This document shows positions 20,656 through 22,975 of a stretch of DNA of 64,000 nt, piece by piece. The stretch is from Bryobacterales bacterium F-183 (lineage in GTDB: Bacteria; Acidobacteriota; Terriglobia; Bryobacterales; Bryobacteraceae). The notes under the pieces were generated by a model. The model searched no databases, was not told the DNA's origin, and worked only from the letters and a program-made list of their open reading frames with translations. The stretch lies in the NCBI GenBank assembly GCA_016865505.2, contig AP025252.1:1116001-1180000 (forward strand). Reading direction: 5' to 3'. How positions within the stretch are numbered: the stretch's first letter is position 1; each line of letters opens with the position of its first letter. The translations under genes and the position numbers were made by a program.

Positions 20656-21603
20656 TTAGGCGGCCATCGGCTGCTGCTGCTGTTTGGCCTTTTCACACTC
20701 TTCGCAGAACGGTACGCCGGATTCGGCGGCCTTCTGTAAAGTGGCAGCCTGAGCGGCTTCGTCGTGCTCCTCCGGGAACCCTTCAATCACCGGAGCCGGC
20801 GGGGTCGCCTCAGGCTGTTTCGCTTCTGCGGCGGCGAGTTTTTCGCACTCTTCGCAGAACGGCACGCCGGATGAGGCGGCATCGGTGAGCGCGGCGGCTT
20901 GCTTGTCCTCGTCGCTGTTGGGCGGCAGTACGGCGGGTTCTGGAGGCGGCGGTGCTTCTTCTTCGCCGCTCGATGCAGCGGCGGCAGCAAGTTTGGCGCA
21001 CTCTTCGCAGAATGCCGCACCAGAGGAGGCGGCGTTGGCAAGGGCGGCGGCCTGCTGCTTTTGGTCGTTCTCTTCCAGGTCCGACGATTCGGTTTCGGCG
21101 GGAGGCTCCGGGGGCGGAGTGGCGGCGAGCCGTGACTTTTCGCACTCCTCGCAGAACGGTGTGGCATCCTGCGCGGCATTGGACAGCGTATTGGCCTGAC
21201 TGTCGGGGTCGTGATTTCCAGCGAACGTGTCGCTCTCGGTGGCGGGAGCGAACTCGATGGGCCGTCTGGGCGCGGCTGGGGTGGCCGCACTTTGCCCGCG
21301 GACACCACCTTCGGCGGGGGTCCAACGCTTGATCACCAGAAGGCGGCGCTTGACCAGCAGGTCCGCCATCTTGCCGGTGAGTTCGTCGAGGCGCCAGCGG
21401 TAGGTCTGCCCGGGAAAGCGCTGGCTGAGCAGCATGCGGAATTCGTGCGGTTCGTGGAAGGTACGCAGGAATTGCTGCGCCTGCTGCGGTGAACCGAAGC
21501 CCACCTGAGCTGTCTGGATCTGCCCGGCAAGGCGCGACGCTGGCGGCTTGCCACCATCGGCCCAATAAAATGCGTACTCGAAGTACTGCCGGGAAATGAT
21601 CAT
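20656..21603 (-). CDS. Protein with four PFCEEC repeats (CxxC), unknown
   Basis: About 315 residues from the ATG at 21603; a TTG four codons upstream is possible. The N-terminal ~95 residues form a compact domain (QYFEYAFYWADGGKPP ... FGSPQQAQQFLRTF ... LLVKRRLLVIKRW). The remainder is four tandem units of roughly 35-55 residues. Each has a short helix QAxxLxxAAxxGxPFCEEC(E/A)K followed by an acidic or Pro-rich linker. Each unit has one CEEC pair, so the protein could bind up to four metal ions or form redox pairs; two CxxC motifs might share one zinc. No signal peptide is seen. It lies 36 bp downstream of eutB on the same strand. I do not recognise the family. Confidence 0.75.
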   Translation of the reverse strand: MIISRQYFEYAFYWADGGKPPASRLAGQIQTAQVGFGSPQQAQQFLRTFHEPHEFRMLLSQRFPGQTYRWRLDELTGKMADLLVKRRLLVIKRWTPAEGGVRGQSAATPAAPRRPIEFAPATESDTFAGNHDPDSQANTLSNAAQDATPFCEECEKSRLAATPPPEPPAETESSDLEENDQKQQAAALANAASSGAAFCEECAKLAAAAASSGEEEAPPPPEPAVLPPNSDEDKQAAALTDAASSGVPFCEECEKLAAAEAKQPEATPPAPVIEGFPEEHDEAAQAATLQKAAESGVPFCEECEKAKQQQQPMAA

Positions 21604-21639
21604 CTCTAACGACAACTACCGTAACATTAGGCGACGTTT

Positions 21640-22950
21640 CTATGCGAAACCTGTCACCAATGCTGGAGTCGATTCGGAGAGTTTGCGCCTTTGGGCCGCG
21701 TCAAAGCCTTGCAGCCAGTTTTCAAACTCCGGCGCGGGACGCAGACCGAGCACCTGGCGGACGTACAGCGCATCGTGGAACGAAGTGCTCTGGTAGTGCA
21801 GCATGATGTCGTCCGCGCCGGGCACTCCCATGATGTAGTTGCAGCCGGCGACACCAAGGAGCGTCAGTAGAGCGTCCATGTCGTCCTGGTCCGCTTCGGC
21901 ATGGTTGGTGTAGCAGATGTCGCAGCCCAAGGGTACGCCCAGGAGCTTGCCGCAGAAGTGATCTTCAAGTCCGGCGCGGGTGATCTGCTTGCCGTCGTAG
22001 AGGTACTCGGGTCCGATGAAGCCGACTACGGTGTTGACAAGCAGTGGCTCATAGCGGCGGGCGACGGCGTAGGCGCGGGCTTCCAAGGTCTGCTGGTCTA
22101 CGTTGTGGTGCGCATTGGCCGATAGCGCGCTGCCCTGCCCGGTCTCAAAGTACATGACATTCTCGCCGCGGCCGAGGGATTTTGCGGCGGCCCAGGCTTC
22201 GTCCAGCAACTTGAGGTCGATGCCGAAGGACTTGTTGGCGGCCTCCGTACCGGCGATGGACTGGAACACCAGGTCGACGGGCGCACCTTTTGCGATGGCC
22301 TCCACCTGGGTGGTGACGTGCGCGAGGACGCAGCTTTGGGTGGGAATCGAAAAGCGCTGGCGGACGCGATCGACCATTTGCAGCAGGCCGATGACGGTTT
22401 TGACGTTGTCGGTCGCAGGGTTGATGCCGATGCAGGCGTCGCCGCTTGAAAGCAAAAGGCCATCGACGATGGAGGCGGCGATGCCTTCGGGGTCGTCGGT
22501 AGGGTCATTGGGTTGGAGGCGGGTGGACATGCGCCCCGGCAGGCCAATGGTGGTGCGGAAGCGGGTGACGACGCGGCATTTGGAGGCGACGGCGACGAGG
22601 TCCTGCAGGCGCATGATCTTAGATACGGCAGCGGCCATTTCGGGCGTCACGCCTTTGGCGATGGAGGTTACGGCATCGGCGGGAGCGGCCAGCAGCCAGT
22701 TGCGGAAGTCGCCAACGGTGAGGTGCGCGATGGGCGCGAAGGCTGCGGGGTCGTGCGAGTCCAGGATCAGGCGGGTCACCTCGTCTGATTCATACGGGAT
22801 CACCGGTTCGTTGAGAAAGCGTGTCAGTGGTACGTCGGCCAACTGCATTTGCGCACGTACACGCTCTTCCGCAGAAGACGCGGCGAGGCCAGCCAGCTGA
22901 TCTCCAGAGCGGAGGGGCGTGGCTTTGGCTAATACTTCGCGAAGCTCCAT
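21640..22950 (-). CDS. eutB: Ethanolamine ammonia-lyase large subunit
   Basis: A 436-residue TIM-barrel subunit from the ATG at 22950. It cleaves ethanolamine to acetaldehyde and ammonia with adenosylcobalamin. Active-site positions known from the E. coli enzyme appear kept: R144 and Q146 in STRLQPN, N177 in GINPATD, E269 in FETGQGS and the Asp residues of NHAEADQDD near 354-357. Length is close to the usual ~450. The small subunit gene eutC, normally directly downstream, is absent; the next gene downstream encodes the PFCEEC repeat protein instead. No other eut or microcompartment gene is visible in the window. Confidence 0.92.
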   Translation of the reverse strand: MELREVLAKATPLRSGDQLAGLAASSAEERVRAQMQLADVPLTRFLNEPVIPYESDEVTRLILDSHDPAAFAPIAHLTVGDFRNWLLAAPADAVTSIAKGVTPEMAAAVSKIMRLQDLVAVASKCRVVTRFRTTIGLPGRMSTRLQPNDPTDDPEGIAASIVDGLLLSSGDACIGINPATDNVKTVIGLLQMVDRVRQRFSIPTQSCVLAHVTTQVEAIAKGAPVDLVFQSIAGTEAANKSFGIDLKLLDEAWAAAKSLGRGENVMYFETGQGSALSANAHHNVDQQTLEARAYAVARRYEPLLVNTVVGFIGPEYLYDGKQITRAGLEDHFCGKLLGVPLGCDICYTNHAEADQDDMDALLTLLGVAGCNYIMGVPGADDIMLHYQSTSFHDALYVRQVLGLRPAPEFENWLQGFDAAQRRKLSESTPALVTGFA

Positions 22951-22975
22951 CAAAGTAAGTATGCCTACAATGGAG

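What the first reader, a model, noticed from the sequence alone, without database searches (positions are those of the whole stretch)
20656..21603. Four-repeat PFCEEC protein of unknown family
Four units share QAxxLxxAAxxGxPFCEEC(E/A)K with variable acidic/Pro linkers. Eight cysteines in CEEC pairs suggest metal or redox binding along a flexible tail attached to a ~95-residue folded head. Linkers vary while the helix-CEEC block is strictly kept, a sign of functional selection on each unit.
Basis: partly seen in the sequence, partly recalled or inferred. Interest (0 to 1): 0.62.

Follow-up and report, generated by a model that had tools for sequence, protein, structure and literature searches.

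The report
Four-tag type VI secretion loading scaffold
This bacterial protein carries four copies of a short tag that, elsewhere in bacteria, sits on parts of a toxin-injecting nanomachine right beside an adaptor gene, so it is probably a multi-slot platform for loading toxins onto that machine rather than a metal-storage or redox protein.

Summary
In detail: a 315-aa minus-strand gene (ATG 21603, stop 20656) has a ~97-residue head and four PFCEEC units. The unit is not confined to this protein. In 43 loci found by a genome scan it sits on VgrG, PAAR, PAAR-toxin and Rhs proteins and on small head proteins. A DUF4123 gene (type VI secretion, T6SS, adaptor) is the next gene in 37 of 43 and lies nearby in 42. 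In 297 genomes of the window's phylum, all 9 with the tag have DUF4123, which only 12 have. [quoted passage not shown] the unit is predicted, at low confidence, to be one. I read it as an adaptor-docking tag (about 0.8).

The window gene has no adaptor beside it. Its genome and the one same-genus genome searched both hold an orphan short, one-lobe DUF4123, plus stand-alone C-lobe genes beside candidate effectors. This suggests a four-slot scaffold in a split adaptor system (about 0.5). Metal or redox function is untested. Single-cysteine tags and adaptors lacking the cysteine pair argue against a simple CxxC redox or zinc-hook role. No binding was measured.

The parts
20656..21603 (-). Whole gene, 315 aa: head, acidic/Pro linkers, four docking tags
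21313..21603 (-). Head domain, residues 1-97; predicted b-b-b-a-a-a-b, no Foldseek match at E<=0.001; distant relatives head other tag proteins
21130..21207 (-). Tag 1 PDSQANTLSNAAQDATPFCEECEKSR
20986..21063 (-). Tag 2 QKQQAAALANAASSGAAFCEECAKLA
20833..20910 (-). Tag 3 EDKQAAALTDAASSGVPFCEECEKLA
20683..20760 (-). Tag 4 EAAQAATLQKAAESGVPFCEECEKAK

Best explanation
[quoted passage not shown] VgrG, PAAR, Rhs and small head proteins mostly carry one tag and recruit the adaptor encoded next door, which in turn brings an effector. The window protein is a stand-alone version with four tags. Its likely partner is the orphan short DUF4123 protein encoded elsewhere in the same genome (C1:1358770). Effector choice would come from separate C-lobe proteins encoded beside scattered effector genes. 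Shown by computation: the repeats, their occurrence on T6SS parts, the DUF4123 linkage and co-occurrence, the one-lobe fold of a short adaptor, and the stand-alone C-lobe family. Inferred: that tag binds N-lobe, that four tags load several complexes, that partners work in trans, that the large neighbours are effectors, and what the head does.
For: (1) Scan with the window protein: 43 loci from several phyla. Bearers by profile: 7 VgrG, 9 PAAR, 8 head family, 19 other. Pfam on chosen examples confirms VgrG (L042), PAAR (L032; L039 with an Ntox46 toxin) and Rhs (L040). (2) An ORF holding DUF4123 is the next gene in 37 of 43, within 2 kb downstream in 4 more, on the opposite strand in 1, and absent only from L009, the orthologue of the window gene. 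Pfam confirms DUF4123 in 31 of 31 of these proteins that I gave it. (3) 297 genomes of the phylum: tag in 9, DUF4123 in 12, TssB in 51; all 9 have both (Fisher 5e-15 and 7e-8). 101 relatives: tag in 9, DUF4123 in 18, the 9 included (2e-8). (4) A short tag-adjacent DUF4123 (L010) folds confidently (pLDDT 93.5) and matches Tap3, chain 9r8g_B, at residues 13-185 of 290, Z 12.9, 3.4 A over 147: the N-terminal part only. (5) The tag is predicted as helix-turn-helix; [quoted passage not shown] (6) The genome has an orphan short DUF4123; 165 of its first 175 residues match that of G001, a draft genome in which the only tag hits are those of the four-tag gene. G033, with three tags, likewise has an orphan short DUF4123. 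(7) L011, four tags, is followed by a protein with two DUF4123 domains. (8) Stand-alone C-lobe family: a profile made only from 12 stand-alone proteins hits the part after DUF4123 in 18 unique ORFs, 17 at E<0.001; one such gene lies directly upstream of the four-tag gene in G001.
Against: No binding data and no complex model. My VgrG, PAAR, DUF4123 and C-lobe profiles find nothing else in the 64-kb window, and the C-lobe gene present at this spot in G001 is missing here (36 bp between eutB and the ATG), so the locus could be decaying, although dN/dS argues against that. The tag helix-turn-helix is low confidence. The VgrG6 tail sequence was not seen, because the primary paper is not held. Some DUF4123 loci have no recognisable tag (for example L088 and L094; L157, L163 and L169).
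Confidence: 0.6

Rival explanations
1. The tag is a metal site: CEEC plus two adaptor cysteines (xCL[YF]xG and LPTC) form an intermolecular Cys4 zinc clamp that locks adaptor to spike.
For: Of 54 unique DUF4123 domains with a CxxC tag within 460 nt upstream, 41 have both cysteines; of 21 with the tag 0.46-4 kb upstream, 0 have both; of 28 with no CxxC tag found, 8 have both. Of those 8, four stand beside one-cysteine VgrG tails and one beside an LLEVC tag that the CxxC pattern misses. Some one-cysteine tags end the chain about where the second cysteine would be (PFCEI, PFCDI, PFCDM, AFCDI).
Against: PAAR-tag-toxin proteins keep CEEC while their DUF4123 lacks both cysteines; Pseudomonas CAVC and other variant tags sit beside adaptors without the pair. 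L158 has no cysteine in its tag core; L094 has the pair but no tag. The tag call used a loose pattern and relatedness is not corrected for. The distance between the two adaptor cysteines could not be measured because no coordinates were available.
Confidence: 0.3
2. Homotypic zinc hook, as recalled for Rad50 (no call): two CxxC tags from different chains share a metal and join spike parts; DUF4123 is only co-encoded.
For: Helix-CxxC-helix shape and multi-tag proteins.
Against: One-cysteine tags recur, and tag presence tracks DUF4123 more tightly than T6SS (9 of the 12 DUF4123 genomes against 9 of the 51 TssB genomes).
Confidence: 0.1
3. The four-tag protein is a sponge or brake: it ties up adaptors and lowers effector loading.
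For: Free-standing, no VgrG or PAAR part, and no adaptor gene beside it.
Against: In L010 and L011 multi-tag genes keep an adjacent adaptor, as one-tag genes do; the head is as conserved as the tags, which a mere sponge does not require.
Confidence: 0.15
4. The protein is a general metal or redox protein with no link to secretion.
For: Eight cysteines in CxxC pairs; the DNA neighbours examined are eutB and two genes with no or only weak family matches.
Against: Same unit on VgrG, PAAR and Rhs proteins, with DUF4123 in 42 of 43 loci.
Confidence: 0.04

Closest known systems
C-terminal helix-turn-helix of VgrG6/VgrG14 bound by Tap6/Tap14 N-lobe (Colautti 2024; not read, known only through passages of PMC12909789 and PMC13133936)
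   Same: Position at VgrG C-terminus, predicted helix-turn-helix, DUF4123 next door
   Different: Here it is portable to PAAR, Rhs and small head proteins, has an FCExC core, and is repeated up to four times; whether the VgrG6 element has that core was not seen
DUF4123 (PF13503) adaptors such as Tap3 (9r8g_B)
   Same: The tag-adjacent gene is a clear family member by Pfam (31 of 31) and by fold for the one modelled
   Different: Many here are short, covering only the N-terminal part of Tap3, with the C-lobe encoded as a separate protein or not seen
VgrG4a C-terminal extension contacting Tla1 and Tle1 (PMC13133936, passages)
   Same: Last ~20 residues of VgrG recruit the DUF4123 adaptor
   Different: No helix-turn-helix there, by that paper
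MIX, DUF2345, LysM and other modules found stand-alone or fused in vgrG loci (PMC10673891, abstract and section 7)
   Same: Same mobile logic: stand-alone or fused module aiding effector recruitment
   Different: The six families named there do not include this tag or this head
Rad50 zinc hook (recalled, no call)
   Same: CxxC between helices
   Different: One-cysteine tags and adaptor linkage

Membership tests
T6SS VgrG-type adaptor-docking element | Encoded beside a DUF4123 adaptor gene | tested here: met
   Met for the unit as a class, 42 of 43 loci; not met for the window gene itself and its orthologue L009, whose DUF4123 genes are elsewhere in the genome
T6SS VgrG-type adaptor-docking element | Present at the C-terminus of VgrG | tested here: met
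   7 of 43 bearers are VgrG; in 6 the tag lies within 61 residues of the end, in L047 177 residues follow it
T6SS VgrG-type adaptor-docking element | Helix-turn-helix shape | tested here: inconclusive
   Predicted H137-149 and H156-164 but at low pLDDT, 49-59 per block of ten
T6SS VgrG-type adaptor-docking element | Physical binding to DUF4123 N-lobe | not testable with these tools
   Needs a complex model or an assay
DUF4123 adaptor (orphan partner, C1:1358770) | PF13503 above its cut-off | tested here: met
   91.1 bits against 25.8
DUF4123 adaptor (Tap, two lobes) | C-lobe in the same chain | tested here: not met
   A tag-adjacent adaptor of 175 aa matches Tap3 13-185 of 290 only; the orphan is 182 aa, and the C-lobe profile hits neither among its DUF4123 matches
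VgrG | Phage_GPD / gp5 domains | tested here: not met
   No such Pfam match in the window protein at E<=10
Zinc ribbon or LIM-type metal domain | Pfam match above curated cut-off | tested here: not met
   Weak hits of 20.3 and 14.1 bits, below cut-offs 27 and 29.1
Zinc hook | CxxC pairs joined by a shared metal | not testable with these tools
   One-cysteine variants argue against it

The most novel reading that the evidence does not exclude
A hub-and-spoke T6SS loading system: one scaffold with four docking tags, one shared N-lobe adaptor encoded alone, and several interchangeable C-lobe proteins each encoded with a distant effector, so that one spike accessory can carry up to four different toxins. 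Both genomes of the genus show four C-lobe places away from any tag gene, matching the four tags, which may be coincidence (one genome is a draft); the three-tag genome G033 shows two C-lobe matches.
Probability: 0.3. Interest if true: 0.8.

Novelty: new variant of a known kind. Interest (0 to 1): 0.63.

Why it matters
How one T6SS shot selects and carries several effectors is, to my knowledge, an open question. A short, mobile, countable tag that marks proteins an adaptor can dock on would let effector-loading hubs be found by sequence across phyla, and a four-tag scaffold with separate adaptor lobes would be a direct test case for multi-effector loading.

Tried and rejected
Curated family libraries gave no defining match for the window protein. 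Solved structures: no match to the tag profile (best E 0.88) and no sequence match to the DUF4123 protein (only one chance hit, E 0.27). Head fold: no Foldseek match at E<=0.001 (best 0.29); VIA-align best Z 3.9 to HutZ, in the range of common arrangements; this shows neither a new fold nor an unrelated one. The idea that adaptor cysteines follow the tag failed as a general rule. A supposed head-VgrG fusion in L130 was rejected: the upstream part of that open frame does not read as VgrG, by eye. The L093 VgrG tail first looked truncated; three more VgrG tails that end in the same way (L063, L064, L066) show a recurring variant. My VgrG profile also matches the window gene, only because VgrG tails carry the tag; VgrG bearers were therefore counted only where the match spans at least 150 residues. 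EutB next to the gene is taken as an unrelated neighbour. Literature: the string PFCEEC (0 papers) and FCEEC, FCEIC, CEECEK (27 papers, 15 listed, none of the listed titles on secretion) gave nothing relevant; T6SS with Acidobacteria, adaptor and VgrG gave 4 papers, of which passages of PMC3482391 were seen and hold no DUF4123 in the part held. Passages of PMC13373197, PMC11883445 and PMC13340143 were also seen. Only an open-licence library was searched, so absence from print is not shown.

Full report
What is there. The minus-strand ORF at 20656-21615 is genuine. The same-genus orthologue begins at the ATG equivalent to position 21603, which gives 315 aa. It has a head of about 97 residues and four units, at residues 133-158, 181-206, 232-257 and 282-307. 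A tag profile made without this genome's rows finds the four units with i-Evalues from 4.2e-9 to 2.8e-16; the next of 676 window ORFs scores 0.39. Compared with the orthologue, units (82 of 104 identical) and head (74 of 97) are more conserved than linkers (62 of 107 and 7 gapped columns); dN/dS is 0.17, 0.14 and 0.27, only rough because dS is 1.0-1.5.

Where the unit occurs. One genome scan found 43 loci. In them the unit is carried by VgrG (7), PAAR proteins (9, six of them with more than 200 residues after the tag), proteins of the same head family (8) and others (19), including an Rhs protein. Over 44 rows the unit reads xxxDxxAQAxxLxxAAxxGTPFCEECEKA, with the C, E and C of the CExC core invariant in that set. 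That set was found with FCEEC-type peptides among others, so invariance is partly built in; later loci show FCAIC, FCNPC, VCAVC, one-cysteine and no-cysteine forms.

The adaptor link. In 37 of 43 loci the ORF that holds DUF4123 starts within 60 nt of the tag gene's stop or overlaps it, on the same strand. In 4 (L030, L035, L040, L047) it follows within 2 kb, in L050 it is on the opposite strand, and in L009, with 1473 bases held downstream, there is none. ORF starts are mechanical; counted by the start of the domain instead, 31 of 43 lie within 250 nt and 10 lie 422-1989 nt after the tag gene. L046's match is cut by the contig end. DUF4123 was called by my own profile; Pfam confirms 31 of 31 proteins given to it. 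In 297 genomes of the phylum the tag profile hits 9, DUF4123 12 and the sheath protein TssB 51; all 9 tag genomes have both. In 7 of the 8 tag hits outside this genome the tag lies about 11-17 kb from TssB on the same contig. Among 101 relatives, 9 have the tag and 18 have DUF4123 (17 over the cut-off), the 9 included. Fisher values are 5e-15, 7e-8 and 2e-8; they ignore relatedness between genomes. The tag therefore follows DUF4123 more closely than it follows T6SS as such. Against this, 3 of the 12 and 9 of the 18 DUF4123 genomes had no tag hit at E<=0.001; on inspection some of those have variant tags (L093, L154, L160, L167) and others none that I recognise (L088, L094, L157, L163, L169).

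What the partner is. A tag-adjacent short DUF4123 protein (L010) was folded with 31 sequences: pLDDT 93.5. Its only Foldseek match at E<=0.001 among solved structures is Tap3 in the Tke5-Tap3 complex, at Tap3 residues 13-185 of 290, so it covers the N-terminal part. [quoted passage not shown] The primary paper (Colautti 2024) is not held. The window tag is predicted as helix 137-149, a turn around PFCEEC, helix 156-164 (numbered from the TTG start), at low pLDDT. This is why I read the unit as the adaptor-docking tag.

The missing lobe. A small gene family recurs in these loci. Its iterated profile also hits the C-terminal part of 21 longer DUF4123 ORFs, some fetched twice. A profile made only from 12 stand-alone members, not iterated, hits the part after DUF4123 in 18 unique ORFs, 17 of them at E<0.001. 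It is thus a stand-alone version of the adaptor's C-lobe. In G001 one such gene lies directly upstream of the four-tag gene; in the window only 36 bp separate eutB from the ATG, so it is absent here. This genome has C-lobe matches at five places. One is beside the one-tag paralogue (L002). Each of the other four stands directly upstream of a gene series with a large ORF that could be an effector; two of these are 748-750 aa with HEIGHH motifs, one with a weak M12 peptidase match below cut-off. G001 also has four such places away from its tag gene: in three the C-lobe is upstream of the large ORF, in L204 downstream of it. C-lobe matches occurred in 8 of 9 tag genomes searched (not G059) and in 3 of 11 genomes that I picked for lacking tag and DUF4123. 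That these large ORFs are effectors is inference; most have no Pfam match.

Why the window gene stands alone. Multi-tag proteins seen: this one (4), G001 (4), G033 (3), L010 (2), L011 (4, one FCEAC) and a Pseudomonas protein in L130 (2). The first three have no adjacent adaptor. Each of those three genomes has a short orphan DUF4123 with both cysteines elsewhere (L081, L168, L162). This genome's orphan and that of G001 share 165 of the first 175 residues, while no one-tag paralogue was found in the G001 draft, so the orphan is the natural candidate partner. L011 pairs four tags with a protein holding two DUF4123 domains. The T6SS cluster of this genome (TssB at C1:4443853) has a VgrG and a PAAR with long Q/A-rich tails and an FHA-like DUF4123 protein (FHA by eye), and the tag profile finds nothing there even at E<=10.

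The cysteines. Of 103 unique DUF4123 domains examined, 54 have a CxxC tag within 460 nt upstream: both cysteines in 41, second only in 4, first only in 1, neither in 8. With the tag 0.46-4 kb upstream (21): both 0, second only 3, neither 18. Without a CxxC tag found (28, one with little upstream DNA): both 8, second only 4, neither 16. The pattern used is loose; a few calls (L120, L151) look spurious. A Cys4 zinc clamp is possible in the split class but cannot be general, because PAAR-tag-toxin proteins keep CEEC beside cysteine-free adaptors. One-cysteine tags, mostly at the very end of the chain (L063, L064, L066, L093, L154, L155, L167), speak against a redox pair or a zinc hook. I leave the cysteines' role open.

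How it most likely works. Shown: repeats, bearers, linkage, partial adaptor fold. Inferred: each tag binds one DUF4123 N-lobe; an effector-specific C-lobe joins that N-lobe and its effector; the head docks the scaffold to the spike. I give 0.8 to the tag being an adaptor-docking element, 0.5 to the window protein being a multi-slot scaffold in trans, and 0.6 to the explanation as a whole.

Noticed in passing
L054:1165-1545, L080:191-841, L159:1972-2712 and others: A family without a Pfam match is the stand-alone form of the DUF4123 C-terminal lobe; split adaptors recur in these loci.
   Followed up: partly
L197:6267-10433, L199:6233-10425 (own genome): Two parallel cassettes: double C-lobe gene, a ~367-aa protein, then a ~750-aa protein with a HEIGHH motif; possible T6SS metallopeptidase effectors.
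   Followed up: partly
L198:7023-7910 (own genome): C-lobe module fused to a GNAT acetyltransferase domain (PF13302, 2.2e-21).
   Followed up: no
L074:15739-19998, L075:696-1931 (own genome): T6SS cluster with a VgrG of 1112 aa and a PAAR protein with long Q/A-rich tails, and an FHA-like DUF4123 fusion, no tag found.
   Followed up: no
L039, L048, L049, L051 (Nannocystis): PAAR-tag proteins with long C-terminal parts (Ntox46 in L039), followed by DUF4123 proteins with an N-terminal extension.
   Followed up: no
L063, L064, L066, L093: VgrG tails that end at PFC(E/D)(I/M) or AFCDI, so the chain terminus falls about where the second tag cysteine would be.
   Followed up: partly
alignment A3 (DUF4123 proteins of the loci): 2 of 31 DUF4123 proteins also match Pfam Tsi6 (PF18660, best 1.9e-8), a possible link between an adaptor part and an immunity-protein fold.
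   Followed up: no
window 21640-22953 (-): EutB, ethanolamine ammonia-lyase large subunit (PF06751, 1.8e-213); a eutB-like gene also lies near the tag gene in G001, with the C-lobe gene between them.
   Followed up: no
L016, L017, L019, L020, L022: In tubeworm-symbiont genomes and one other the tag ends a ~290-310-aa protein whose start has ...IPGPIG or KPGPIG; function unknown.
   Followed up: no
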